A stretch of 50,635 nucleotides of DNA from Terriglobia bacterium. GTDB taxonomy: Bacteria; Acidobacteriota; Terriglobia; Terriglobales; Acidobacteriaceae. A program made the position numbers and the translations under genes. The notes beneath the pieces were generated by a model that was not told the origin of the DNA, did not search any database, and was given only the letters and a program-made list of their open reading frames with translations. The stretch spans positions 1 through 50,635 of the forward strand of contig JAIQFW010000040.1 in NCBI GenBank assembly GCA_020073105.1, in the 5' to 3' direction. This document shows, one piece after another, positions 152 through 37,276 of the stretch; position 1 is the first letter of the stretch, and each line of letters begins with the position of its first letter.

Positions 152-1393
152 CTACTCGTACCTCAGCGCTTCAATCGGATCCAGACGCGAGGCCCGGATC
201 GCAGGCAACATCCCGCTCACCAGTCCCACCACACCGAGGATCACCGTCGCCACCAGCAGCGTGACCGGGTCGAGCACCAGACGGATATCGCCGCCCTCGG
301 CGTGTTGGGCGACGGCGCTGTACAGCGTCAGCCGGCCCACAGAAAGAGAAACGATGTAAGCAAGAATCACACCCGCCAGGCCGCCCACAAAACTGATGGT
401 CAGCGCTTCCGCCAGGAACTGCAGGAAGATGTCGCGGCTGCGCGCCCCGAGCGATTTCTCCATACCGATCTCCCGGGTGCGCTGCGTCACCGAGACCAGC
501 ATGATGTTCATCAGGCCCACGCCACCGATCCCCAGAGTCAGTGTGCCGATGAATCCCAGCAAAATCTTCAAGCCGAGGGTGATGATTTCAAACTGGTGGA
601 CCTGCTCCATCAGGTTGAAGATCACCAGGGCGCGGCGGTCGGCCGGGTTGAACCGGTGCTGCGCTCCCAGGGTGTAGCGCACCGATTGCTCCAGCCTCAA
701 ATACTCCATGGTTTCGTAGTTGAACCAAACGGAGTCGAGATAGCGGGTATCCTTCAGGTCGGCCATGGTGGTGAAAGGAACATAGAGGGCGCGGTTGATG
801 TTGTCATTGCCAGCCTGCATCTTGGCTTCGAGAATTCCGATGACCTCGAAGCTGATGCCGTCGATGCGTATCCGCTCGTGCAGGGCATTGCGTCCGGAGA
901 AGAGCTTTTCCTTTGCTTCGGAGGCGAGCACGGCCACGTGCGCCCGCTGCATTTGGTCCTGGAGATTGTAGAAGCGCCCCTGTGCCATGGTGAGCGCGCG
1001 GATGCGAACCGCGCTGGGATATTCGCCGCGCACATCGAAATTGTAGGTGCGTGTCTCGTATTGAATGCTGGCCCGCTTACTGACCTCCGGTGTGATGTGC
1101 ATGATCTGGGGAACGTTCTGGTGCAGGAGATCGATGTCCTCCAGGGTCAGGCGCAGCTGGGTGCCCGCTTTCTGCCCTCCAGCCTGCATGGAGGAGCGGC
1201 CGGGAATAAGGACCATCAGTTTGGTGCCAAAGTTGGCGAAGATGTTGGCACAAGCCTGGCCAAAACCGTTGCCATAGGCGAGGAGCATGACCACGGTGGC
1301 GATGCCCCAAGCCATGCCCAGCATGGTGAGTGCGGTACGGCGGCGGTTGTGCTTCATGGCACCGTAGGCTTCGTGAAGTAAATCTCTCAACAT
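152..1393 (-). CDS. MacB/FtsX-type ABC transporter permease
   Basis: A 413-residue inner-membrane permease. The N-terminus (MLRDLLHEAYGAMKHNRRRT, then a hydrophobic helix) is followed by a large periplasmic MacB_PCD-like domain at about residues 45-240. Three C-terminal transmembrane helices of the FtsX domain follow, with the cytoplasmic coupling segment TQRTREIGMEKSLGAR and the ending PIEALRYE, both typical of the family. Such proteins work with an ATPase and a periplasmic adaptor in mechanotransmission-type efflux or lipoprotein transport. The gene begins 3 bases after the stop of the upstream permease, so the two are almost certainly cotranscribed and probably translationally coupled. The substrate is unknown. 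An adaptor and ATPase lie at 17.0-19.3 kb, but not next to it. Confidence 0.9.
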   Translation of the reverse strand: MLRDLLHEAYGAMKHNRRRTALTMLGMAWGIATVVMLLAYGNGFGQACANIFANFGTKLMVLIPGRSSMQAGGQKAGTQLRLTLEDIDLLHQNVPQIMHITPEVSKRASIQYETRTYNFDVRGEYPSAVRIRALTMAQGRFYNLQDQMQRAHVAVLASEAKEKLFSGRNALHERIRIDGISFEVIGILEAKMQAGNDNINRALYVPFTTMADLKDTRYLDSVWFNYETMEYLRLEQSVRYTLGAQHRFNPADRRALVIFNLMEQVHQFEIITLGLKILLGFIGTLTLGIGGVGLMNIMLVSVTQRTREIGMEKSLGARSRDIFLQFLAEALTISFVGGLAGVILAYIVSLSVGRLTLYSAVAQHAEGGDIRLVLDPVTLLVATVILGVVGLVSGMLPAIRASRLDPIEALRYE

Positions 1394-7923: not shown

Positions 7924-9369
7924 TTGCGAAAACTATCTCTTCGTTTGATAACCATGTTGCTACTCGCCGCTTCCGGCGTTTCGCCAGCCCAGTCGATACA
8001 GCGGCTGACGCACGCAGCGCCGGACGGCGCGATTTTTGCTCTTCAGCTGACAGACGGAACCGTGATGGTGCAGGGTAACGGTGAGACGGATTGGTGGAAA
8101 CTGACGCCCGACAACAAAGGAAGTTATCTCAACGGGACCTGGTCCCAGCTTGCCAGCCTGCCTGCCGGGTATGAACCCTACGCATCTGCCTCAGCAGTTC
8201 TGGCGGACGGCCGGCTGCTGGTTGAAGGCGGCGAGTACAATTTCGGCAACTTTGATTTGACGAATCTGGGAGCGATATATGATCCCAAGACCAATACCTG
8301 GACCAAAGTGACGCCGCCGCCTAAGTGGAGTTTTATTGGCGATTCTCCCTCGTCGGTGCTTGCGAACGGTTTGTACTTGATCGGGAACAAGTTGGTCAAA
8401 AACATCGCGGTGCTGGACCCAAAAACCATGACATGGCGGCAGGGCATAGCACCCGGCAAAAGCGACTTCAACGCCGAGGAGGGCTGGACGCTGATGCCGG
8501 ACGGCAGCATTTTGACGCTCGACGTTAAGAATGCTCCCAACACCGAGAGATTCATCCCCTCAAAGAAAAAGTGGGTCAGTGCCGGGAGCACGATCGTGGA
8601 TCTGCACTCGCCTTCCCCCTTCGGTTGCTTGCCTTTTGGTCCCGGGGGCAAGTATTGCTACTACCCACCCGGAGAAATCGGCCCCGCGATACTCCGTCCT
8701 GATGGAACTGTCTTTGCCACCGGGTCCTACACGCAGGATGGAAGCCCTGCCCACACTGCCATCTATGCTCCGGGGAAGAATCCCTCGGACACCGGCACCT
8801 GGACCGTGGGCCCGGACTTCCCCAATGGCGACGACGCGGGCGATTCCTTTGCCGCACTGCTGCCGAACGGTGATGTGCTGGTGGAGGGTGAATCTGGAAC
8901 CTTGTACGTTTTCGATGGGAAGAACTTAACCCCAGGCCCCTTCGCCGGCGGCAGCTTGCTGGTCCTTCCCACCGGGCAGATTCTGATCGGGGGAACGGAA
9001 CTCTACAACCCGGCGGGCTCCTACCAGTCATCGTGGGCGCCGACGGTAACCAATTGTCCGGCGGCTGTGACTCGGGGAAACTCCTACAAAATCTCGGGCA
9101 CCCAGTTCAACGGACTGTCACAAGCAAACTCTTTCGGCGACGAGTTTGAGACGGCAACCAATTACCCGCTGGTGCGCATCACGAATCAGGCTTCGGGCCA
9201 CGTATTCTATACGCGCACGCATGACCACAGCAGCATGGGGGTGGCCACCGGAAGCAAGATAGTTTCGACGACCTTCGATGTTCCGTCGAACATGGAAACC
9301 GGAGCCAGCTCACTCGAGGTCGTGGCTAACGGGATACCGTCCATCCCCGTGAGCATTACGATCAACTAA
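7924..9369 (+). CDS. Exported kelch-repeat, galactose-oxidase-like protein
   Basis: A 481-residue secreted protein. It starts at a TTG preceded by AAAGGTGA at good spacing. A signal peptide (about 1-20, ending GVSPAQS) leads into repeated kelch-type blades, for example SASAVLADGRLLVEGG, AIYDPKTNTWTKVTPP, GWTLMPDGSILTLD, FAALLPNGDVLVEGE and LLVLPTGQILIGG. The C-terminal 100 residues (GTQFNGLSQANSFGDEFETA, NYPLVRITN, then a THDHSSMGVATG segment) resemble the DUF1929-like domain that follows the propeller in glyoxal/galactose oxidases. I cannot identify the Tyr-Cys copper site, so enzymatic activity is uncertain. A strong terminator separates it from the multicopper oxidase gene. Confidence 0.85.
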   Translation: MRKLSLRLITMLLLAASGVSPAQSIQRLTHAAPDGAIFALQLTDGTVMVQGNGETDWWKLTPDNKGSYLNGTWSQLASLPAGYEPYASASAVLADGRLLVEGGEYNFGNFDLTNLGAIYDPKTNTWTKVTPPPKWSFIGDSPSSVLANGLYLIGNKLVKNIAVLDPKTMTWRQGIAPGKSDFNAEEGWTLMPDGSILTLDVKNAPNTERFIPSKKKWVSAGSTIVDLHSPSPFGCLPFGPGGKYCYYPPGEIGPAILRPDGTVFATGSYTQDGSPAHTAIYAPGKNPSDTGTWTVGPDFPNGDDAGDSFAALLPNGDVLVEGESGTLYVFDGKNLTPGPFAGGSLLVLPTGQILIGGTELYNPAGSYQSSWAPTVTNCPAAVTRGNSYKISGTQFNGLSQANSFGDEFETATNYPLVRITNQASGHVFYTRTHDHSSMGVATGSKIVSTTFDVPSNMETGASSLEVVANGIPSIPVSITIN

Positions 9370-9378
9370 ATGCTCTTC

Positions 9379-9422
9379 GCCGCGCTCGTGCCAAGTACCC
9401 GGACGAGCGCGGCTTCTTTTAT
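9379..9422 (+). terminator. Rho-independent terminator
   Basis: Perfect 11-bp arms GCCGCGCTCGT (9379-9389) and ACGAGCGCGGC (9403-9413) are followed by TTCTTTTAT. It lies just after the kelch gene stop, so the multicopper oxidase gene downstream probably has its own promoter. Confidence 0.9.
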
Positions 9423-9482
9423 TTGGTTGGCTCTGAGTAGCTGGCTCCGAGAAAACATTCGTTCAGCGCCAGGGGAATGAAC

Positions 9483-11030
9483 ATGCGCCAGTTCGTTTTC
9501 GGCATCACGTTGGCTCTGGGAATCTGTCAGGCAGCTTCCTGGGCGCAGATTTGTCCCACCCGCCCGATTCCCGGCAGCACCGTCGTGGACCCGTTTGCCG
9601 TCCAGAGCCAGGACGGAGTGGCACACCTTGATCTTGCGATTTCAAACTACAAAGACCTGCACACGCGAGATATGTTCTACTGCCTGGCGTATGCACCGGG
9701 TATCGAGGCCCCGACCATCCGGGTTAATCCTGGAGACACGATTTCGTTGAACCTTTCGAACAGGATCCGCTCGGTACCGACGGAGCCTCTGATGCATGTC
9801 CCCGTTACACCAGGCGACCCGGCCTGCCATGGCACCATGACAGCCTCGTCGACGAACCTGCATTTTCACGGCCTCAATGTTCCTCCCAAATGCCACCAGG
9901 ACGAGGTGATCTTCACGCTGATCAACCCAGGGGACCCGCCTTTTCACTATAGGACGACCATACCCCGCAACGAACCGCCGGGACTGTACTGGTACCATCC
10001 TCACCCACATGGGATGACCCAAGTCCAAGTGATGGGAGGCGCCTCCGGCGCCATCATTGTGGAAGGCATGGAAAAGATCAAACCGGAAGTCACGGGTCTC
10101 ACCGAGCGCGTGTTTATTTTCCGTGACGTCATCAACAACGGCGACGCTGACGAAGGTACGATGACGCTGAATTTCATCCCCGTGAACCCGCCTCACCTGC
10201 CTTTGCCCGCCATCGAGCTTAATGCCGGGGAGAAGCAGTTCTGGCGGGTCTTGAACGCGCAGGGAGAGAGCTTCCTGAAGCTGCAGTTACAGTACGACAA
10301 CCAGCCGCAAACCGTTCAAGTCGTCGCCCTGGACGGGACGCCTCTGCCGAGCGACATCCGAACCAACACAGTCTTGATCCCGCCGGCAGGAAGAGCAGAG
10401 TTCATCATGCAAGGCCCAGCCTCATCGAACGTGAATGCTGCGCTGGTAACATTGGCTGTTAACACGGGGGCGGACGGAGATCCAAACCCAGCGCATGCTA
10501 TTGCCGCTATTTTCGTTGACCAGGCAGCGAGTCCAGGAAGGATCCCGCCTCGCATTGAGAGAGAGAAGGTCAAGCGTTTTGCCGGCCTGGCGGACGTCAC
10601 GCCCCTTGCTCACCGGAAACTATACTTTTCCGAAGACTTGTCCGATCCTGATGACCCGAAGTTTTTCATCACCGTGGACGGCCAGACTCCGAAGCAGTTC
10701 GACCCGAACGACCCTCCGGCCATCGTTACCAAGCAGGGGGCCGTGGAAGACTGGACCATTGAGAATCGCTCGAAAGAGATCCACGCATTTCACATGCACC
10801 AAATCCATTTCCTGTTGCTAGCTAGAAACGGACGCCCCCCTCAACACCGCGAGGTCATGGATACGGTAACGGTGCCGCCCTGGTCGGGGAGCGGCCCCTA
10901 TCCTAATGTGAAGGTGCGGATGGATTTTCGCTGGCCGGAGTCGGTGGGAACATTCGTTTATCACTGCCACATTCTCGACCACGAAGACGGCGGAATGATG
11001 GCGAAAATTGAGGTGGATCCGGCGAAGTAG
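9483..11030 (+). CDS. Multicopper oxidase
   Basis: An exported laccase-like enzyme of about 515 residues that oxidises a reduced substrate and passes electrons to O2. A signal peptide covers roughly the first 23 residues (FGITLALGICQAASWA). All four copper-binding blocks are present: LHFHGLNVPP (~128), WYHPHPHG (~171), HAFHMHQIHF (~436) and HCHILDHEDGGMM (~496). Together these supply the T1 Cys/His/Met and the T2/T3 histidines. I start it at the ATG at 9483 because AGGGG (9471-9475) sits 7 bases ahead; an ATG two codons earlier is too close to that site. There is no methionine-rich insert as in CueO. It converges with treT, leaving a 9-base gap. The substrate is not predictable. Confidence 0.92.
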   Translation: MRQFVFGITLALGICQAASWAQICPTRPIPGSTVVDPFAVQSQDGVAHLDLAISNYKDLHTRDMFYCLAYAPGIEAPTIRVNPGDTISLNLSNRIRSVPTEPLMHVPVTPGDPACHGTMTASSTNLHFHGLNVPPKCHQDEVIFTLINPGDPPFHYRTTIPRNEPPGLYWYHPHPHGMTQVQVMGGASGAIIVEGMEKIKPEVTGLTERVFIFRDVINNGDADEGTMTLNFIPVNPPHLPLPAIELNAGEKQFWRVLNAQGESFLKLQLQYDNQPQTVQVVALDGTPLPSDIRTNTVLIPPAGRAEFIMQGPASSNVNAALVTLAVNTGADGDPNPAHAIAAIFVDQAASPGRIPPRIEREKVKRFAGLADVTPLAHRKLYFSEDLSDPDDPKFFITVDGQTPKQFDPNDPPAIVTKQGAVEDWTIENRSKEIHAFHMHQIHFLLLARNGRPPQHREVMDTVTVPPWSGSGPYPNVKVRMDFRWPESVGTFVYHCHILDHEDGGMMAKIEVDPAK

Positions 11031-11039
11031 GGCACGATT

Positions 11040-12404
11040 TCAGGCAGTTCCGATGTGCAGCAGGACTCGCAGCAACAACAGCCACCGCCGGACATTGGTG
11101 GTCATCAAGAAATTCTCCTTCACGTGCTCGCGTCCATTCCTGCCCAGCTGCGCGGCAAATTCGGGGTGGGTTAGCAGATAACGTATTTGATACGCACAGC
11201 CCTCGACGGAATGCACCAGCATGCCAGTGAGCTTATGGATGATCTGGTTAGGAATGCCGCCCACCGCACCGGCAATGGTGGGCTTCCCTTTCCACAGGGC
11301 TTCGGTCACGGTCAGTCCAAACCCTTCCTTGATTGATTTCTGAATGATGAGTGTCGACGCGCGTTGCAGGGCGTTGATTTCCAGCGCGCACCACGGAGGC
11401 AAGTCGAGAATAATGACGTCGGGATCGTCACCGGCGGCGTCCTTGACCTCTTTCAGAACGGTTGCGCCCTCCGGGTCGTCGCTGGCTCCTCCGCCAGCCA
11501 GCACCAATTGGCAGTCCACATATCTTCTGGCCAGCTTGAAGGCCTGGACTACACCCAGCGGGTCCTTCAACCGGTCGAAGCGCGAGACCTGGGTCACGAT
11601 GGGCCGTGCGCGGTCAATGCCGAATTCCTCACAGACCTTCTGAACAAAGCTTTCATCCAGCTCCTTGTTCTTCTCCGACAGCGGATCGATGCATGGATAG
11701 AACAAGTACTGCGGGATCGGCAACTGGCGGGCAAAGGATTGCGAGGAGAAGATCGCCGCGTCGTACTGTTCGATAAAGGGCCGCAGGAAACCCCAGACTT
11801 CAGGGTGTGGGTTGGACAGATCGATGTGGCAGCGCCAAACCCAGCGAGCAGCCGTCTCCTGACGCGCACGGATGAGTGCAGCGGGCTGGGGGTCGTGGAT
11901 CACGACCATATCTTCGGTGAATTGCATGCGCTGGCGGTTTTGTTCGTTGTACATCAGAAATATTTCTTCGGCATGTCGCGTCGGTTCGTAATCGCTGCCG
12001 TGCAGCGCATTGTGGAAGGCCTTGGTCACCTCAAAGAAATCGTTGCCTCCGGTAATGACGTCCCAATGGGTCGTCACCTCTAGTTCGTTCATCAGGGGAA
12101 CCAGACGGTTGAGCATTTCGGCCACTCCTCCGCCGACCGCCGTGGAGTTGACCATCTTGACGGTTTTTCCTTTGAGCTCGCGGGCAAGAAATCGCAATTC
12201 GTCGATGTCGGCGGCGCCGACAATGCTTTGGTAGTCGTCCAGATGGGGCGGCGGCACCGGTGCCGGAGGAGTCTCCCAGGTGCGAGGCGCCCTGCGCCGC
12301 TCTGGCTGTACACCGGGGGATGGGGCAGGCACTGCAGGAGTGGCCGTTGTTGTCTCAGCCGCCGCTAAGTGGCTCCCTACGGATTGGTCTTTCACCGGTT
12401 CCAT
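11040..12404 (-). CDS. treT: Trehalose synthase TreT-type glycosyltransferase (GT4)
   Basis: A 454-residue cytoplasmic glycosyltransferase. TreT enzymes join NDP-glucose to glucose to give trehalose. An N-terminal tail of about 45 residues rich in Pro/Ala precedes a GT-B fold. MVNSTAVGGGVAEMLNRLVPLM marks the nucleotide-sugar enzyme N-domain, VTQVSRFDRLKDPLGVVQAF the linker to the C-domain, and EGFGLTVTEALWKGKP the donor-binding E-x7-E region of GT4. It is the last gene of a four-gene minus-strand operon, 17 bases after the DUF5752-like gene and downstream of otsA/otsB. The cell would then have a one-step and a two-step trehalose route under common control. A trehalose phosphorylase of the same family remains possible. 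Confidence 0.88.
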   Translation of the reverse strand: MEPVKDQSVGSHLAAAETTTATPAVPAPSPGVQPERRRAPRTWETPPAPVPPPHLDDYQSIVGAADIDELRFLARELKGKTVKMVNSTAVGGGVAEMLNRLVPLMNELEVTTHWDVITGGNDFFEVTKAFHNALHGSDYEPTRHAEEIFLMYNEQNRQRMQFTEDMVVIHDPQPAALIRARQETAARWVWRCHIDLSNPHPEVWGFLRPFIEQYDAAIFSSQSFARQLPIPQYLFYPCIDPLSEKNKELDESFVQKVCEEFGIDRARPIVTQVSRFDRLKDPLGVVQAFKLARRYVDCQLVLAGGGASDDPEGATVLKEVKDAAGDDPDVIILDLPPWCALEINALQRASTLIIQKSIKEGFGLTVTEALWKGKPTIAGAVGGIPNQIIHKLTGMLVHSVEGCAYQIRYLLTHPEFAAQLGRNGREHVKENFLMTTNVRRWLLLLRVLLHIGTA

Positions 12405-12421
12405 CCTTTACTCATCCGCCC

Positions 12422-13099
12422 TCATAGCAATGCTCGCTCCAGGATTCGCACCATCTGGGTGCGCACCCCCTCCAGGGTCGCAGTGTAGATATCAACCCGG
12501 TTCAATGCCCGCGCCGTCTCCGTCAAGCCCACGTCCTCGTGCAACCATTGAGAAAAATCGTTCGACATGAGCTTGAGCCGCAAGCGTGCTTCGATGAAAT
12601 GGTGGTGGATGGAATGCACGCTCACCCGCCTTAGCCCCTCGACAAACTCGTGCAGGGCGTGGGCGACAAAGCTGGTGGGCATCACGACAATGTCCGAGGC
12701 GCAAAAGTAAAAAGTGTCATCTGCCCTGCGCGGGCCCGCTGCCGGCTTCTGCTCGAGATACTCCTCCACAATCTGGATGAATCGTTCGCGCAACTCTGCC
12801 ACCGAGGTGAATTCGCGCACGTCCACGCTGGCCAGCCGCTCCGCCAAGCTTGGCTCGTTGCAGGCAGAGAGCGCCCAGTGCGCAAAGTCGTTGGAAAACC
12901 CCTCGCGAATGAAGTGATGTTCCTGCAAGGTGCGAAAGGAGTGCTGGAAGATGGAATCTTCCGGGCACTCCCGCAGTGCGTCCCGCAACTCCGCCAGCGT
13001 ATTCGCTTTGTAACGGGTGATACGCAGCAGGTGGGCGGAGGTATTGAAATAGAAGGGTTTCGCCGGCGTGCGCTGGAGGGCGGGTGTAAGGCTGGTCAT
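12422..13099 (-). CDS. DUF5752-like protein of the trehalose operon
   Basis: A 225-residue soluble, mainly helical protein with no signal or membrane segment. It opens with PFYFNTSAHLLRITRYKANTLAELRDALRECPEDSIFQHSFRTL, continues with FSNDFAHWALSACNEPSLAERLASVDV, and ends in a second helical half. I recognise it as the DUF5752 type from memory of proteins seen beside TreT-type genes; no biochemical role is known to me. Its ATG overlaps the otsB stop by 4 bases, and treT follows after 17 bases. It is therefore locked into the trehalose operon and may help or regulate TreT. Confidence 0.75.
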   Translation of the reverse strand: MTSLTPALQRTPAKPFYFNTSAHLLRITRYKANTLAELRDALRECPEDSIFQHSFRTLQEHHFIREGFSNDFAHWALSACNEPSLAERLASVDVREFTSVAELRERFIQIVEEYLEQKPAAGPRRADDTFYFCASDIVVMPTSFVAHALHEFVEGLRRVSVHSIHHHFIEARLRLKLMSNDFSQWLHEDVGLTETARALNRVDIYTATLEGVRTQMVRILERALL

Positions 13100-13923
13100 C
13101 GGTTCACCGCCGCCACCGCCTCACTGCCGGAAGCATCGAGTGCCTGGCAGGCCTTGAGCCACCGTGCCAGAAAGTCGAGCAGTTCCTCCGGCGGCTTGAG
13201 CCACAGCCGCGCGGCCGTCTGCCGCCACTGCGGTCGCACCAGGACGCTCAGGCCGCGGCCATTGATGGCCCGGAAAGCTCGCTCATCCGTGTTGTCGTCT
13301 CCCAGATATGCGGCTGGCGTGTTCGCACTCATTTCGCTCAACAGGGAGCGCACCGCATCACCCTTGTCGGGTGCCGACGCGCGGATTTCCACTCCACCGT
13401 CGAATTCCAACAGATCGAGTCCAGCCTCCTGAGCAAGGTGGATCCAACCCAACAGCACCCGGCCCCGAATTTCAGCCGCCTCCCGTTCACCGAGATCACG
13501 CCAATGGATGGCGATACTTCCGGTCTTAAACTCTGCCATGTGGCGGAGTTGCTGGTAGCCCAGCCAGTTGTCGGCAGCGGAGAGGGCGTCGAGAGTGCTC
13601 TCATGCAGTTGCGGGGTCTTTACAGTCCCGTCCGGTTTCAGCCGCTGGGAACCGTGCAGACCCCAAATTTCCGGACTGGGATCCAGGCCCAGCAGGGGTG
13701 CGGTCTCGCTTGCATCCCGTCCAGAAATAATCACGACCCTTGTGCGGCCGTTGCGGACGATCTCCTGCAAGACCGGAGCCACCCCGGGATACGGCAGCGC
13801 CTGGTCACGTTCCTTGCGGAACGGGGCCAGCGTCCCGTCATAGTCCAGCAACAGTAATGATCGGGATGCACGCGCGACCGTTTGCAAGAACGGTTCAATG
13901 TCAGGTTGCGTTTCTGGCCTCAC
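13096..13923 (-). CDS. otsB: Trehalose-6-phosphate phosphatase
   Basis: A HAD-family phosphatase that removes phosphate from trehalose-6-phosphate. Motif I is LLLLDYDGTLAPF (nucleophile and acid/base aspartates), motif II is VVIISGRD, and motif IV is YLGDDNTDERAF. I choose the GTG at 13923, giving 275 residues (RPETQPDIEPFLQ...). GGAGG stands 9 bases upstream, this start avoids overlapping otsA, and an extension to the ATG at 14004 would add only an arginine-rich stretch read from inside otsA. The otsA stop is 28 bases upstream and the DUF5752-like gene overlaps by 4 bases downstream. It completes the OtsA/OtsB pathway. Confidence 0.92.
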   Translation of the reverse strand: MRPETQPDIEPFLQTVARASRSLLLLDYDGTLAPFRKERDQALPYPGVAPVLQEIVRNGRTRVVIISGRDASETAPLLGLDPSPEIWGLHGSQRLKPDGTVKTPQLHESTLDALSAADNWLGYQQLRHMAEFKTGSIAIHWRDLGEREAAEIRGRVLLGWIHLAQEAGLDLLEFDGGVEIRASAPDKGDAVRSLLSEMSANTPAAYLGDDNTDERAFRAINGRGLSVLVRPQWRQTAARLWLKPPEELLDFLARWLKACQALDASGSEAVAAVNR

Positions 13924-13951
13924 TGCCCTGCTCCTCCGTCGCGGTGGCCGA

Positions 13952-16243
13952 TCAGGCCATCGATGCGCTCTTGCGAAGTGTCTCCTGCCCGTCCTCAGCC
14001 GCATTCAGCCGGACCTCGCAGAGTTCTGTAATCAAACTTCCCGCCCAGCGGTAGATGTTGTGCTCCCGAACCACCCGGCGCATGCGATGCATGCGAACTT
14101 GCTTGTCCTCCGGCTCCATTTCCAGCGCCACGCGGATGGCTTCCGCCATCTGCTCGATGTCGTAGGGGTTGACCAGGAGTGCATCCCGCAGCTCGCGCGC
14201 CGCTCCGGTAAACTGGCTCAACACCAGCACACCTCGTTCGTCAGGGCGCGCGGCCAGGAATTCCTTGGCCACCAGGTTCATGCCGTCGTGCAACGAGGTG
14301 ACCAGGCAAAGATCAGCGGCCCGATAGTAGGCTGCGATCTCGCTGTGACTGTGTTGCCGTTTCAGAAACACGATGGGTCTCCACTTGCTCGTTTGAAAGC
14401 GCCAGTTGATGCGCTCGGCTTCGGCCTCGACTTCGGCCAGCAGATCGTGGTAGCGCTTGATATGAGTGCGGCTTGGCGCCCCGATCTGCACGAATGCAAA
14501 CTTCCCTTGATAGTTGGGATGCTTCTCCAGAAAGCGCTCAATCGCCAGGAAACGCTCGAGGATCCCTTTTGTATAGTCGACCCGGTCCACACCCACGCCC
14601 AGGAACGTGGCCTCAACTCCCAGGTTCCGCAGTAGTGCGGAGCGCTCGATGTAGCCGAGTTCATGATCCTTGCTTTCTGCCGACTCGTCGTCGACAAGGT
14701 CCACGCTAATCGGGAACGGGCGGACGGCGGTGCGATGGTCCTGGCGCAGCACAGAAAAATGCTCCCAGTCCACGCGCGACTCAACTACCCGATCCACAGT
14801 TTGCAGGAAGTTGTTGCAGTGCGACTGAATGTGAAAACCAATCAGGTCCGCGCCCAACAGGCCGTCCACCAATTGGCGCTGCCAGGGACAGATGCCGAAA
14901 GCTTCCGGGTTGGGCCACGGGATGTGCCAGAAGATCGCCACCCGCGCATCCGGCCGTCTCTCCTTGACCAGCCGGGGCAGCAGAGCAAAGTGATAGTCCT
15001 GAGCCAGCACGACGGGATTGGGGATATCTTCGATTTCCTCTAATAACGCCTGGGTGAATTTCCGGTTAACGTCCTGGTAGTGTTGCCAGTCGTCCGCCCG
15101 AAAAATGGGACGGGTATGAGCAATGTGGCAGAGCGGCCACAGACCCTCGTTGGCAAAGCCGTAGTAGTAGCCTTCTTCCTGCTCTTTGGTCAGCCATACC
15201 CGGCGCAAGGTGTAGCGCGGATCCTCGGGCGGAACCCGCAGCCGATCCTGTGCGTCCACGACTTCCAAGTCGGCGTCCCCGCTGCCGTGAGCGATCCAGG
15301 TGCCATCACAGGCGTTGAGTACCGGCTCCAGGGCGGTTACCAGGCCGCTCGCCGGCACCACGACTTCCAGGGCCTTGCCGTTGCGCTGGTGGAGGTAGGG
15401 CTCGCGGTTCGAGACAGCAAACAGGCGGCTGCCATCCAGGCGGGTCTGAACCTGCACCGCAAGCCGGTCCGCCGTCCACAGCGATTCCGCCGCTTCCCGC
15501 AAACGGGCCTCGTTCTCGGCAGCGTTACGCGCCTGGTTCAGGCTCTCGGCCAGTGTGGCGACCTCGCGAGCCAGCGGCCGGAAGAGATCGAGGTCCGGCA
15601 TTTCCTGACGCGAGGAAACCTTTCCCATGCGGAGGGCGCGCATCCAATGCGCGGCACGGGCGATCGGACCGGCGATGCTCCAACGCACGATCAGCAGGGT
15701 GATAAGAACGATGAGGAAGACTTGGGCCAAGACGCGCTGAAAAGTGTCTCGCCACACGCGAAGGGTCTGTTCGTGGATGTAGCTTACGTCGTGGACAACC
15801 GCCAGGCCACCGACCACCTCGTCTTGCTGCTGGAGGGGTAAGGCCAGGATGTAGACCGGGACACGGTTCAGACGGAGAAACGCGCTTTGTCCCTGATTTT
15901 CCGCGATCGCCTGAGTGACCACGTCCGGACTGGCAGTCAGCATCTTCTCCAGTTCGGGAGTCATCGCCACCAGATTCCCCCGCCGGTCGTAGACAGCCAC
16001 CCCAATCAGGTGTTCACGGTTCCCGAAGCGCTGCACCAGTCGCTGTAGTTCGCGATTCGAGCTCACGTTCCAGGTTCGCTCGACATTATTAGCGAGGCTC
16101 TCGGCCAGCACCTCCGCTCGCCGTTGCACCTCACCGCGCAGGCCACGTCTTTCCCCTATCACCTGGTAGTAGGAAAACAGAAGGGACACGAGTGTGATGC
16201 CCAGAATCAGGGAGACAATCAGCCGAACACTCAGCAATCGCAT
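13952..16243 (-). CDS. otsA: Membrane-sensor/HAMP-fused trehalose-6-phosphate synthase (GT20)
   Basis: A 763-residue protein, about 280 residues longer than a plain OtsA. Residues 7-26 form a transmembrane helix. Residues 27-171 are a predicted extracytoplasmic sensor domain ([18 protein letters not shown] is Cache/PAS-like). Residues 172-190 form a second helix. Residues 187-245 are HAMP-like followed by a short coiled coil ([23 protein letters not shown]). The GT20 domain starts at about 273 ([10 protein letters not shown]) and contains [47 protein letters not shown] and [13 protein letters not shown]. The reaction joins NDP-glucose and glucose-6-phosphate. The layout implies synthesis at the inner membrane under control of an external cue. 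It is the first gene of the trehalose operon. A related glucosyl-phosphate acceptor specificity cannot be excluded. Confidence 0.9.
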
Positions 16244-33454: not shown

Positions 33455-36400
33455 CTAATCCCCCGAAAGAACTTGCCCCAAGGCCGTGTCCCGCCAACGA
33501 CGCACGCTCATCACGTCGAAGCGAGTGCCCTTGAAGACTATTTGCTTTACGGGCTTCCTGCCATTGTTGCTAACGTCTCTGAGATATTCGCGCACTTCCA
33601 TCCAACGAACCTCACCCTCTGAGGTGCGGATCACCAGCATTACAGGAAACGCCTGTGCCATCCAATAGCGGGCGTGCCGTTCTTCTTTCATCGTGAAGAT
33701 TTCCGCGCCATCGCCCTTACGTTCTCGCAGATAGGAATCGCCCGACTTGAGTTGAAGATATAGCTTTTTCCCGGTGGCTTCACCCGCTTCGTTCTTGAAT
33801 TCGATTTCCATGTCGATGCCATGGTCGCTCACGTTGAACTCCCGGCTGATTTGCCCGGCAAGGGCTGCTGTGGAAATCACTTCGCCCACCAACGCACGTT
33901 CCTTGCTCTCGTTGTCGAGCACAATGGCCGACTGCTCCTGCAGCTCCCGTACCCTCTGTTGTATCTCCAAGCTGGCGAACCACTGCTCTAGCTCGTCCCA
34001 CAACGGCACGCGTTCCTCGCATTCGGAGCAGACGATCGTTGGCGCCTCAGGCCTCCCGAGTCCACCTTGGGTCCGATCGCCCGCTGCTTGGTTAGTTGCC
34101 TTCTTCTTCAGCCACGCCTCAAGTCGACGCATCGCCACTTCCCGGTTGCCAGCCAGCGTGCCGCAGTGCGGACACACGTAATGCCGCAGCCGCACAACAT
34201 CCTGTCCCTTTTGGAGTAGGTGCTCGTGGACATACCGGCTGAAAATAATCTTTTCTTCCACTGGGATGACCGGGTCGAAATAGACCTCCAGTTCGCCCGC
34301 CCCCTCAGCTCGACGTGTCAGCTTCACGCCCAGTTGTTTGCCGGTCAGGGTCTTGAAGTCCGCTGCGTAACGCCACAATTGATCTTGCTCGAACGGATTC
34401 GTGTTGTGCAGTCGCACCACCAGCGTGGCGTAAACGTCGTCGAGAAACCCGTTGAAGCGGTAGGTCAACAGCACAGCTGGGTGCTCCACCAACTCTGGAC
34501 GCTCACGGCGATAATAACTGGGGAAGATAAGCTGCGTTCCCTTATCCGTGTGCTCGCGAAGACACAAGCCTCGCTCGACCAGCATCTGGTGCATTGCCAG
34601 CAGAACGAACCTTTCTTCCTCGGGTTCAAGTCGCCTCACTGAAGAGTGGTACACTAGGTGGCCGCCAAGCACTCGTTCCTCCGCAATTGAGCCGCGCTCG
34701 TGCTTGTCTGCACGCATCGTCTGGATTACCGCCTGGGCATAGGCGTTGATCCGTTCCGGCTGGAGCAACACCCAGCTTCCGAACGAGAGCTCCCACACTA
34801 CGCCTGGGCCAGCCAGCAAGCCCACCACCGCCTTCAAGTCCTCATCGTTGAACTGCACGTCCTCGCGCGCTAGCCGTAGTCGCAAGGCATCGCGCAGTTC
34901 GTTAAACCGAATCAGCACTCGGCCCTCGTCTCTTAGGCGAAGGATCTGCTCCTTAAGACGCTTAAACAGCCGTGGCGACGAGCGCCACGGGATGTCTGCC
35001 CAGTGAATTCCGCTCAAGATGGCATCCTTGAGTTCTTCGCAACCCAGGTTGGCCTTGGCACTCGTCTCTAGGCAGCAGGTAAAACCACGCTCGTTTGCAA
35101 ACTTGGTAATCTGGTTTCGGCTTACACGTAAGCCGCCAGCGTCAACGCGGCCTGCTACGAGGACCTTCGCAAAGGCCTTGCGCGAGGCCCGCGTCAGGTC
35201 GCGGTCCCACTGGCCCAGTGTCTCGAACAAATCATCCTTCTGCCCGTCAAAGACGAGCACAGCCAGGGCCGTGTCCTCCATGTAAAGCTGGTGGATCAGC
35301 CGCTGGTCAGCCTGGCCGCCGAAATCCCAAAGCCAGATTTCGCGTTCGACACCATCGGCCGGGGAGACCGGTAACCTCCAATGCGTGGCCCAGGCGCCGA
35401 CTGTCGAGTCGCTCGGTTTCCAGTCGTTCAACGCCAGCCGCATCGAAAGCGCGGTCTTGCCTGCACCCGTATCGCCGACAAGGAGGACCTTAGCGTTCGT
35501 GTATTGGATCTGATCCGGCAAGGGCGCCAAAGCTGATACAGCGGCGTGCGCTGTACGCGACTCGCTGACGATTTTCGATAGGTCCCACATACGAATGCAG
35601 CCGGTTGCGTCACCGGAGAAGGCCCGGTGACCATCGGGGGCCCACGCGGCGCTCATGACACTGCCAGAATGACCTACCAACACACGAAGGCAGCGCCCGA
35701 TGTCAACGTCCCACAACCTCACGGTGTGGTCCTCGCTACCAGAAAGGACGTGCCAACCATCGGCGTTCCACGCCACGCTATAGACACTACCTGTATGACC
35801 TTCGAGTACACGCAGGCAACGTCCTGTCTCAACGTCCCACAGTCGCACCGTCCGGTCGTCCGAGCTGGAAAGAATGCGGCGTTGATCAGCGTTCCACGCC
35901 ACACTATAGACGCTGCCCGTATGACCTTCGAGTACATGCAGGCAACGTCCTGTCTCAATGTCCCACAGTCGCACCGTCCGGTCGTCCGAACCGGAAACGG
36001 CAAGGTCTTCGGCGCTCCATGCCACGCTCCTTACGCCGCCGGTATGGCCCGTCAACACTCTCAGGCAGCGCTCCGTCTCCACATCCCATATTCGCAGGGT
36101 GCCGTCTCCAGAACCGGAGATAGCACGGCAGTTATCGTTGCCCCACGCGACAGGGCCAACCCAAGCTGTATGGCCTTCGAGGAAATGCACGCAGCGTCCT
36201 GTCTCCACCTCCCACACCTTGACGGTACCGTCTGGCGAATCGAAGTTTTTTGTGGCGCCGGAAAGGGCGAGCCTGTTATCGGCACTCCACGCCACGCTGT
36301 CAACTGCCGCTCTGTGGCCAACGAACACTTGCACCCACCTCCCCTTCTGCAAGTCCCACATCCGCACGCGGCAGTCTTGGCCACCGGTAAGGGCGCGCTT

Positions 36401-36919
36401 GCCATCCGGACTAAATGCGTAGGTACGGATCATCGCATTGCATTCAAGCTGGATAGTCTTTTCTGCAGTCTCCTCGCTCACAGCCTCCGTTGCGCCCATC
36501 GGAGGCTTCGCTGGCGGTCGACAAGCTTCAAGGAGCCTTGCGTACTCCTCCTCGCTGTCCTCAGACAGCCAGTTGATGTATAGGAATTGCGCCAGGGAGC
36601 CTTTAATCGGGGCGTCGTCGAGCCGCAGGGGTATGAAGCGACGCTCCTTGTTCAGCGGGTCGCGAAAACGGAATGTGCCCGCTTCCAACTGGGCCCAGTC
36701 GGAGCCAAATGCGTTCGCAGACATGCACAGCACGAGTACGCGAGAGCGCTCCAGTCCATCATCGATCTTCGCCAGAATGTTGTCGCCGGGGCGGATTTCC
36801 TGGTCATCGAGCCAGACTCGCAAGCCATCTGCCCGTAACCGCTCGGCGACGGCGTGGACGACCATCTTGTCCTTGGAGCTGTGGCTGAGAAAAACGTCAA
36901 AGAAGAACGAATCACTCAT
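33455..36919 (-). CDS. TIR - WD40 - Roc GTPase/COR - Zn-cluster - DUF4365-like multidomain protein
   Basis: About 1,154 residues, no signal or membrane segment. Numbering here starts from a GTG at 36931; I prefer the ATG at 36919, with GAGGTG 9 bases upstream. TIR domain 8-140: FDVFLSHSSKDK, WLDDQEIRPGD, and SDWAQLEAG with the WxxxE glutamate (E83) used by NAD-cleaving TIRs. Seven WD40 blades 165-452 (GHTGSVYSVAWNAD, TVRLWDVETGRCL). Roc-type GTPase ~478-645: P-loop GDTGAGKT (486-493), switch II DFGGQ (536-540), degenerate G4 GRVD, G5 ETSAK. COR-like region ~650-910. Cysteine pairs CPHC (920-923) and CSEC (968-971). DUF4365-like end ~1015-1150 with GID and QLK (1038-1062), a possible PD-(D/E)xK nuclease core. 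Best read as an intracellular sensor with two candidate effectors. It is monocistronic. Confidence 0.88.
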   Translation of the reverse strand: MSDSFFFDVFLSHSSKDKMVVHAVAERLRADGLRVWLDDQEIRPGDNILAKIDDGLERSRVLVLCMSANAFGSDWAQLEAGTFRFRDPLNKERRFIPLRLDDAPIKGSLAQFLYINWLSEDSEEEYARLLEACRPPAKPPMGATEAVSEETAEKTIQLECNAMIRTYAFSPDGKRALTGGQDCRVRMWDLQKGRWVQVFVGHRAAVDSVAWSADNRLALSGATKNFDSPDGTVKVWEVETGRCVHFLEGHTAWVGPVAWGNDNCRAISGSGDGTLRIWDVETERCLRVLTGHTGGVRSVAWSAEDLAVSGSDDRTVRLWDIETGRCLHVLEGHTGSVYSVAWNADQRRILSSSDDRTVRLWDVETGRCLRVLEGHTGSVYSVAWNADGWHVLSGSEDHTVRLWDVDIGRCLRVLVGHSGSVMSAAWAPDGHRAFSGDATGCIRMWDLSKIVSESRTAHAAVSALAPLPDQIQYTNAKVLLVGDTGAGKTALSMRLALNDWKPSDSTVGAWATHWRLPVSPADGVEREIWLWDFGGQADQRLIHQLYMEDTALAVLVFDGQKDDLFETLGQWDRDLTRASRKAFAKVLVAGRVDAGGLRVSRNQITKFANERGFTCCLETSAKANLGCEELKDAILSGIHWADIPWRSSPRLFKRLKEQILRLRDEGRVLIRFNELRDALRLRLAREDVQFNDEDLKAVVGLLAGPGVVWELSFGSWVLLQPERINAYAQAVIQTMRADKHERGSIAEERVLGGHLVYHSSVRRLEPEEERFVLLAMHQMLVERGLCLREHTDKGTQLIFPSYYRRERPELVEHPAVLLTYRFNGFLDDVYATLVVRLHNTNPFEQDQLWRYAADFKTLTGKQLGVKLTRRAEGAGELEVYFDPVIPVEEKIIFSRYVHEHLLQKGQDVVRLRHYVCPHCGTLAGNREVAMRRLEAWLKKKATNQAAGDRTQGGLGRPEAPTIVCSECEERVPLWDELEQWFASLEIQQRVRELQEQSAIVLDNESKERALVGEVISTAALAGQISREFNVSDHGIDMEIEFKNEAGEATGKKLYLQLKSGDSYLRERKGDGAEIFTMKEERHARYWMAQAFPVMLVIRTSEGEVRWMEVREYLRDVSNNGRKPVKQIVFKGTRFDVMSVRRWRDTALGQVLSGD
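35765..35997 (-). repeat. Near-identical tandem WD40-coding repeat
   Basis: Bases 35765-35871 and 35891-35997, exactly 126 bases (42 codons) apart, match at about 99 of 107 positions by hand count, and all differences are transitions. They encode blades 5 and 4 with their junctions. Other blades of the same propeller are much more diverged, so this is a recent duplication or gene conversion. Confidence 0.85.
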
Positions 36920-37276
36920 GAGGTCTGCCACCTCGCTTTGCTGAATGCTCTGTTTTGCTAACCAAATGGCAGATCGTAAGTATATAGCTGTCTTATGGGC
37001 TCTTGACGCTCAACGTTGTCGGGCTCGACGACCAGTTTCGGACGATTCGGCTGACTGGAAGCTATCCAGAAACCGGCCTCGAGGAAGTTGGCGGATCCTA
37101 AATGGAGAAGGCTCAAGTTAGCCTCATTGGGCTGCCCTGCGGGCGCATGCGCGCCACGCATGACTTGCAGTCATTTATACATACTGTGTCTCCTGTATGT
37201 TTTGAAAAATATCTTGACTAACAGGGGGTTGCGTAATGAACAATGACTGCACCTTGAAATGACCCAAGGAGCGGAA
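36920..37276. other. Intergenic region between the TIR gene and the methyltransferase gene
   Basis: About 360 bases with no convincing gene. Near the right end is a more AT-rich stretch with the inverted repeat ACATAC (37179-37184) / GTATGT (37195-37200) and a TTGACT (37214-37219) that could be a -35 for the methyltransferase gene, without a good -10. On the other strand it must contain the promoter of the TIR gene, which I could not place. No tRNA, attachment site or direct repeat flanking the TIR gene was found. Confidence 0.4.

What the first reader, a model, noticed from the sequence alone, without database searches (positions are those of the whole stretch)
13952..16243. Trehalose-6-phosphate synthase fused to a two-TM sensor and HAMP module
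The N-terminal 270 residues have the exact plan of a chemoreceptor or histidine kinase (TM, Cache-like sensor, TM, HAMP, coiled coil), but the output domain is a GT20 synthase instead of a kinase or cyclase. This suggests direct control of osmolyte synthesis by an external signal without a phosphorelay. HAMP-enzyme fusions are common for cyclases and diguanylate cyclases, and unusual for a sugar transferase.
Basis: partly seen in the sequence, partly recalled or inferred. Interest (0 to 1): 0.62.

Follow-up and report, generated by a model that had tools for sequence, protein, structure and literature searches.

The report
Membrane receptor fused to trehalose-making enzyme
This bacterial gene joins a cell-surface receptor module to the enzyme that makes the trehalose precursor, so an outside signal may directly control production of a stress-protecting sugar; the same design appears in many bacterial groups.

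Summary
It reads TM1, WalK-like single-Cache domain, TM2, divergent HAMP, short conserved stalk, GT20 enzyme. The ten substrate-contact residues of OtsA checked outside the uracil pocket are kept, and the predicted fold matches solved trehalose-6-phosphate (T6P) synthases.

It is not a misassembly: the architecture occurs in at least 20 of 199 sampled Acidobacteriota genomes, 11 of 99 from an Elusimicrobia member's phylum, and named records of nine phylum-level groups. On the GT20 tree it needs two changes. Trehalose-phosphatase, DUF5752 and TreT genes are frequent neighbours. Eight of 11 soluble relatives nested in the family start at the fusion point. A sister clade is fused to a Na+/H+-exchanger-type domain.

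Best reading: a one-component receptor-enzyme in which the periplasmic or membrane state gates T6P synthesis through HAMP and stalk. Architecture, fold and intact active site are computed; activity, gating, dimerisation and signal are inferred. HAMP, Cache and the OtsA equivalog all fall below curated cut-offs. Eight searches on the architecture (open-access library) listed no description. Verdict: real, widespread, apparently undescribed variant of a known enzyme.

The parts
13952..16243 (-). Membrane receptor-type GT20 (2TM-sCache-HAMP-stalk-T6P synthase), 763 aa
16181..16237 (-). TM1 (residues 3-21)
   Evidence: hydropathy; helix 2-60 in the model
15764..16168 (-). Periplasmic single-Cache (PDC) sensor domain, residues about 26-160
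   Evidence: sCache_3_2 in 23 of 71 members at E<=0.1, best 1.4e-8; Foldseek to WalK extracellular domain, target TM 0.75-0.79
15680..15763 (-). TM2 (residues about 161-188)
   Evidence: hydropathy window 168-186; distance W164 to P193 columns is 30 residues in 91 of 91 aligned rows
15524..15679 (-). Divergent HAMP, residues about 189-240
   Evidence: hhalign probability 88, score 38.5 against best 18.9 of 30 shuffles; Pfam HAMP in 10 of 71 members at E<=0.1
15479..15523 (-). Coiled-coil stalk, residues 241-255, with conserved E245 and R249
   Evidence: E in 82 of 91, R in 76 of 88 ungapped rows
14009..15478 (-). GT20 catalytic module, residues 256-745; W256 and L261 invariant in 91 of 91 rows; most nested soluble relatives start here
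13096..14004 (-). Trehalose-6-phosphate phosphatase (OtsB type); ORF overlaps the GT20 gene by 53 nt, and the true start may lie further in
   Evidence: PF02358 68.4 bits over cut-off 27; TIGR00685 88.7 bits over cut-off 68.05
12422..13099 (-). DUF5752 protein, recurrent operon partner, function unknown
   Evidence: PF19027 209 bits; 39 of 109 family loci
11040..12404 (-). TreT-like trehalose glycosyltransferring synthase
   Evidence: PF21269 191.8 bits, but NCBIfam TreT_Thcocales 379.5 of 775; 35 of 109 family loci

Best explanation
A one-component, membrane-embedded receptor-enzyme. The single-Cache domain outside the membrane (or the packing of the TM bundle itself) reports a ligand, an osmotic or an envelope condition. 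Movement of TM2 passes through HAMP and a short parallel coiled coil with a conserved Glu/Arg layer into the W256-L261 helix just before the N-terminal Rossmann domain of the GT20 enzyme, shifting it between less and more active states. The enzyme makes T6P from a nucleotide-glucose and glucose-6-phosphate, and the co-encoded phosphatase converts T6P to trehalose. Shown by computation: the domain order, the predicted folds, the intact substrate-binding residues, the conserved linker, the phosphatase neighbour, and family-wide conservation. Inferred: enzymatic activity, dimerisation, gating, the direction of gating, and the nature of the signal.
For: Domain order and folds. The ten substrate-contact residues of OtsA checked outside the uracil pocket are kept in the window (Arg9, Asp130, Tyr131, His154, Arg262, Lys267, Arg300, Asp361, Leu365, Glu369), nine of them in 53 of 53 other two-TM rows and Tyr131 in 48 of 53 (roles from passages of PMC3441724). 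The stalk is more conserved than the sensor: mean majority-residue share 0.585 against 0.416, GT20 0.699, i.e. variable input and constant output. TM2-to-HAMP spacing is 30 in 91 of 91 aligned rows, and P223-to-W256 spacing is 34 in 73 and 35 in 10 of 91. The AS2/stalk helix has a 3.5-residue hydrophobic period, shuffle fraction 0.014. Of 11 soluble relatives nested in the family, 8 start within two residues of the W256 position, so the receptor module was added to or lost from a complete enzyme. Same-strand trehalose-phosphatase, overlapping or within 350 nt downstream, in 60 of 109 family loci. A sister clade is wired to a Na+/H+-exchanger-type domain.
Against: No functional data for any member. 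No ligand pocket was identified, and the sensor is the least conserved part. Two members (L139 and L141) keep the TM hairpin, HAMP and stalk but lack the sensor, so a periplasmic ligand is not needed in every case. Spacings of 27 (5 rows) and 26 (3 rows) are not a clean heptad series. The period at 3.3 residues is slightly stronger than at 3.5. Pfam HAMP is below its cut-off for the window protein and matched by only 10 of 71 members at E<=0.1; SMP_2, annotated as a 'bacterial virulence factor haemolysin' family, is matched by more members (29 of 71) than sCache_3_2 (23). A soluble clade nested in the family works, presumably, without the module. 32 of 109 family loci show none of the three trehalose genes on the same strand, partly through short contigs.
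Confidence: 0.66

Rival explanations
1. Membrane anchoring only: the N-terminal module fixes T6P synthase at the membrane (beside a transporter or envelope machinery) and does not regulate it.
For: The sensor domain is poorly conserved (0.416) and two members lack it (L139, L141). Soluble relatives in the same operon context exist (L071, L065).
Against: A plain anchor does not need HAMP, a constant TM2-HAMP spacing or a stalk with conserved Glu/Arg, and keeping a Cache-like domain across nine phylum-level groups would be unnecessary.
Confidence: 0.17
2. The GT20 domain makes a different product (another acceptor or another nucleotide-sugar), so this is a receptor-controlled glycosyltransferase but not a T6P synthase.
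For: Scores lie below the four NCBIfam GT20 equivalog cut-offs matched: OtsA TIGR02400 429 of 564.85, PRK10117 267 of 759, bifunctional 493.7 of 634, glucosylglycerol-phosphate synthase 314.9 of 569. Family-specific changes near the site (Trp for Leu before His154; His for Arg before Asp361; Ala for Pro297). A TreT-type trehalose synthase sits in the same operon.
Against: Residues that bind glucose-6-phosphate and the nucleotide-glucose are kept. Best solved relatives are T6P synthases, including one solved with ADP-glucose. Trehalose-phosphatase adjoining in 60 of 109 loci.
Confidence: 0.14
3. Assembly or gene-call artefact joining two genes.
For: The window genome is in 308 contigs, and 78 of 80 named relatives are titled MAG.
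Against: The same fusion occurs in 20 of 199 and 11 of 99 sampled genomes, and in Niastella soli, named as a strain; the nearest tree row has the same layout at 85% GT20 identity.
Confidence: 0.01

Closest known systems
OtsA-type trehalose-6-phosphate synthase (GT20; E. coli OtsA, Mycobacterium thermoresistibile OtsA)
   Same: GT-B fold (target TM 0.85-0.92 among the 50 listed matches); substrate-binding residues; phosphatase neighbour
   Different: Carries a 255-residue receptor module; below the OtsA equivalog score; lies in a group with SH-aLRT 100 that holds only two-TM, exchanger-fused and some soluble rows
WalK (YycG) sensor histidine kinase
   Same: TM, single-Cache, TM, HAMP layout; best structural match of the whole N-terminal module (query TM 0.69); NCBIfam WalK model matches residues 12-247 (E 3.6e-9)
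   Different: No HisKA or HATPase among Pfam matches; the output is a glycosyltransferase
HAMP-linked one-component receptor-enzymes (diguanylate and adenylate cyclases; recalled)
   Same: Sensor-HAMP-coiled coil-enzyme plan
   Different: The output makes a metabolite precursor, not a second messenger
Arthrobacter OtsA as osmotic stress sensor (PMC5685639, abstract and section list seen)
   Same: A T6P synthase tied to osmotic sensing
   Different: In the abstract, OtsA self-assembles into networks promoted by T6P; no membrane receptor module is mentioned

Membership tests
GT20 glycosyltransferases (PF00982) | Score over the curated cut-off across the domain | tested here: met
   403.6 bits, cut-off 32.5, positions 2-471 of 473
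T6P synthase | Conserved glucose-6-phosphate and nucleotide-sugar residues of OtsA | tested here: met
   Ten of ten contact residues outside the uracil pocket kept in the window, Ser299 too; of the four uracil-pocket residues Ile295 is kept, Leu344 is Ile, Pro297 is Ala, His338 is Gln
T6P synthase | NCBIfam OtsA equivalog cut-off (TIGR02400) | tested here: not met
   429 bits against 564.85; so it is filed as GT20 with inferred T6P synthase activity, not as the OtsA equivalog
T6P synthase | Catalytic activity | not testable with these tools
   Needs an enzyme assay
HAMP domain | Pfam cut-off (PF00672) in the window protein | tested here: not met
   15.1 bits against 25, E 0.029
HAMP domain | Colinear profile match and two-helix structure just after TM2 | tested here: met
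   hhalign probability 88 with shuffles at most 3.3; helices 154-205 and 222-254
Single-Cache sensor domain | Pfam cut-off for sCache_3_2 | tested here: not met
   17.9 bits against 28.4 in the window; 23 of 71 members match at E<=0.1, best 1.4e-8
Single-Cache sensor domain | PDC/Cache fold between two TMs | tested here: met
   Predicted model: target TM 0.75-0.79 to WalK extracellular domain; 0.64-0.72 to DcuS and CitA
Histidine kinase | HisKA and HATPase domains | tested here: not met
   Not among Pfam matches at E<=0.1
One-component receptor-enzyme | Signal-dependent enzyme activity | not testable with these tools
   Needs an assay in membranes

The most novel reading that the evidence does not exclude
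One GT20 clade across many bacterial phyla has been wired straight to membrane input modules, a Cache-HAMP receptor in one branch and a Na+/H+-exchanger-type domain in its sister, so that osmolyte synthesis is switched allosterically by the envelope or ion state with no kinase, second messenger or transcription step.
Probability: 0.45. Interest if true: 0.78.

Novelty: new variant of a known kind. Interest (0 to 1): 0.6.

Why it matters
How bacteria match compatible-solute synthesis to outside water stress is mostly explained through gene regulation, ion changes or transporters (recalled). A receptor whose output is the trehalose-synthesising enzyme itself would be the shortest possible circuit, directly testable with one purified protein. 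It would also add a metabolic glycosyltransferase to the known outputs of HAMP signalling. The natural series (full receptor, sensor-less TM hairpin, soluble enzyme, exchanger fusion) offers built-in controls.

Tried and rejected
Misassembly or frameshift: rejected by independent occurrences. Inactive GT20: not supported, since the contact residues are kept. Phosphorelay: no kinase domain among Pfam matches. A clean 'multiples of seven' rule for stalk length: not supported, since 34, 35, 27 and 26 occur. A solved relative of the exchanger domain by sequence: none at E<=0.01 for L059. A conserved membrane Asp in the exchanger domain: the Asp of the aligned fifth-segment motif is Gln in L052 and L054, 2 of 8 rows (that this is the transport position is recalled). 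Promoter-like scan: no site found, 1.1 expected by chance, uninformative. PHROGs: two families of unknown function. Plasmid scan: 359 records, none where one place covers 80% of the query.

L113 (Edwardsbacteria) looks broken upstream and L143 (Deltaproteobacteria) is cut by its contig end, so these two groups are not counted among the nine. The 109-locus neighbourhood set dropped four known duplicates; it includes contigs too short to show neighbours (79 of 109 have at least 3.5 kb downstream; of these 57 have any of the three genes, 50 phosphatase, 29 DUF5752, 30 TreT), and eight rows were labelled two-TM by hand (L100, L101, L113, L139, L141, L179, L184, L187). Four phosphatase frames overlap the GT20 gene by 216 to 2160 nt (L047, L050, L053, L125), probably over-extended frames, and they are in the 60. 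The tree used every second two-TM row and 8 of 20 phosphatase fusions, without contig-cut frames or GT20 matches of 430 residues or less (104 rows, quick method). In one search several GT20 hits with open frames under 600 aa, three of about 755 aa with 500-518 bits, and contig-cut fragments were not fetched; all hits of 700 aa or more with 380-430 bits were. So 20 of 199 is a minimum.

Of the ten answered paper searches, eight concern the architecture; one search was for OtsA residues and for DUF5752. Searches found nothing; in the others I judged titles and abstract starts (20 of 21 listed).

Full report
What is there. The gene at 13952..16243 is on the minus strand, 763 codons, ATG start with a GGAGG 7 nt upstream. 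It carries two TM segments (3-21, 168-186) and GT20 at 273-741. It is the only GT20 match in its genome, which is 97.6% complete. Downstream on the same strand follow a trehalose-phosphatase, a DUF5752 protein and a TreT-like synthase.

The receptor half. Standard profiles barely see it: in the window's N-terminus SMP_2 E 0.00028, sCache_3_2 E 0.0034 and HAMP E 0.029, all below the curated cut-offs. Over 71 family members at E<=0.1, SMP_2 is matched by 29 (best 1.5e-6), sCache_3_2 by 23 (best 1.4e-8), dCache_1 by 13 and HAMP by 10 (best 4e-5). A profile of the 71 N-termini against an alignment of 12 HAMP domains from the same genome gave probability 88%, score 38.5, placed right after TM2; 30 column-shuffled controls reached at most 3.3% and 18.9, and a reversed control 0.2%. 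The AlphaFold2 model (pLDDT 86.3, monomer) shows a long TM1 helix, a mixed alpha/beta periplasmic domain, a continuous TM2-AS1 helix and a second helix to residue 254. Foldseek's best match is WalK, with target TM 0.75-0.79 to its crystallised extracellular domain; DcuS and CitA sensor domains follow at 0.64-0.72.

The enzyme half. The best solved relatives are T6P synthases (35% identity to M. thermoresistibile OtsA; target TM 0.85-0.92 among the 50 listed). Using E. coli OtsA and residues named in PMC3441724 (passages read; that paper names Arg9, His154, Arg262, Lys267, Leu365, Glu369, Ser299 and the uracil pocket directly, while Asp130, Tyr131, Arg300 and Asp361 are my mapping of its VldE residues), the window keeps Arg9, Asp130, Tyr131, His154, Arg262, Lys267, Arg300, Asp361, Leu365 and Glu369. 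Nine of these are invariant in 53 of 53 other two-TM rows and Tyr131 is kept in 48 of 53; the uracil pocket is partly changed. Scores are below the NCBIfam OtsA equivalog cut-off (429 of 564.85), so T6P synthase activity is inferred and not assigned by that rule.

The joint. The stalk is better conserved (0.585) than the sensor (0.416). Its core positions are hydrophobic in 95-100% of rows (224, 228, 231, 235, 238, 242) and then carry E245 (82 of 91) and R249 (76 of 88), ending at W256 and L261, invariant in 91 of 91. A polar Glu/Arg layer in such a linker recalls the S-helix described for other receptor-enzymes; that is a lead from memory, not a test. Of the 11 soluble relatives nested in the family on the tree, 8 begin within two residues of the W256 position; the other three have longer frames. 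This marks the natural fusion point.

How widespread. In 199 sampled Acidobacteriota genomes, 77 have a GT20 above cut-off and at least 20 have the two-TM type (22 loci); in the window's own family 7 of 20 sampled genomes have a GT20 and all 7 have this type. In 99 genomes of the phylum of an Elusimicrobia MAG (L107), 24 have GT20 above cut-off and 11 carry the two-TM type: 7 by the strict hydropathy rule, 4 more on inspection of TM1, TM2 and the W-T joint. Named records with the two-TM layout include Acidobacteriota, Nitrospirota, Elusimicrobiota, Omnitrophota, Methylomirabilota, Rokubacteria, Gemmatimonadetes, Bacteroidota and Patescibacteria. 78 of 80 titles say MAG; Niastella soli is named as a strain and Omnitrophus fodinae carries a single-cell style name, so binning errors are possible for single groups.

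Descent. On a 104-row GT20 tree the two-TM type needs 2 changes (shuffled mean 34.8), with a soluble clade of 11 nested inside; the exchanger fusions plus two soluble rows (10 rows, SH-aLRT 100) stand beside the two-TM branch (67 rows, 93), and the two together have SH-aLRT 100. This fits one gain and one loss, though the direction is not proven.

The sister fusion. Eight Acidobacteriota loci (L052, L054-L060), one per genome, have 10 or 11 hydrophobic segments before GT20 (L055 was mis-parsed there and counted by eye). Pfam's Na_H_Exchanger is matched in the two that were scanned (70.7 and 71.8 bits against 26.2), and the other six align with them.

Operon. Of 109 two-TM loci, 77 have at least one of phosphatase, DUF5752 or TreT on the same strand; 68 have phosphatase, 60 overlapping or within 350 nt downstream, 39 DUF5752 and 35 TreT.

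Mechanism. The parts argue for a receptor that gates T6P synthesis directly. Sensor-less members with TM hairpin, HAMP and stalk (L139, L141) suggest that some forms read the membrane itself. Tethering alone and a different product remain possible.

What is known. Eight full-text searches on the architecture listed no paper that, by title and abstract start, describes HAMP-GT20 or exchanger-GT20 proteins; no paper holds both 'HAMP domain' and 'OtsA'. The library is open-access only, and of the listed papers I opened PMC3441724 (passages) and PMC5685639 (abstract and section list). Automatic databases may already list the architecture.

Noticed in passing
L052, L054, L055, L056, L057, L058, L059, L060: GT20 fused to a multi-TM domain (Pfam Na_H_Exchanger in the two scanned, L058 and L059) in 8 of 199 Acidobacteriota genomes; beside the two-TM family on the tree.
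   Followed up: partly
window 33455..36931 (-): 1158-aa protein with TIR, WD40 propeller, Ras-like GTPase and DUF4365 domains; partial similarity to TIR-type and other defence-protein models. Looks like a TIR/GTPase immune-type protein.
   Followed up: partly
window 11040..13099 (-): DUF5752 and TreT genes recur beside receptor-type and soluble GT20 genes in several phyla; two trehalose routes in one operon is unexplained, and no paper in the library mentions DUF5752.
   Followed up: partly
L139:4854-6716 and L141:4953-6791: Natural sensor-less versions: two TMs joined by a short loop, then HAMP, stalk and GT20.
   Followed up: partly
L018, L019, L021-L025: A GT20 group of one Acidobacteriota family (f47) appears to have Thr at the Arg9 position (7 soluble rows with Thr; L018 read); it may have another substrate.
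   Followed up: no
L053:4926-8462: ORF with about 400 extra N-terminal residues before the two-TM module; arginine-rich and without a Pfam match, probably an over-extended reading frame.
   Followed up: partly
window 7924..11030 (+): Kelch-repeat (galactose-oxidase-like) protein next to a multicopper oxidase.
   Followed up: no
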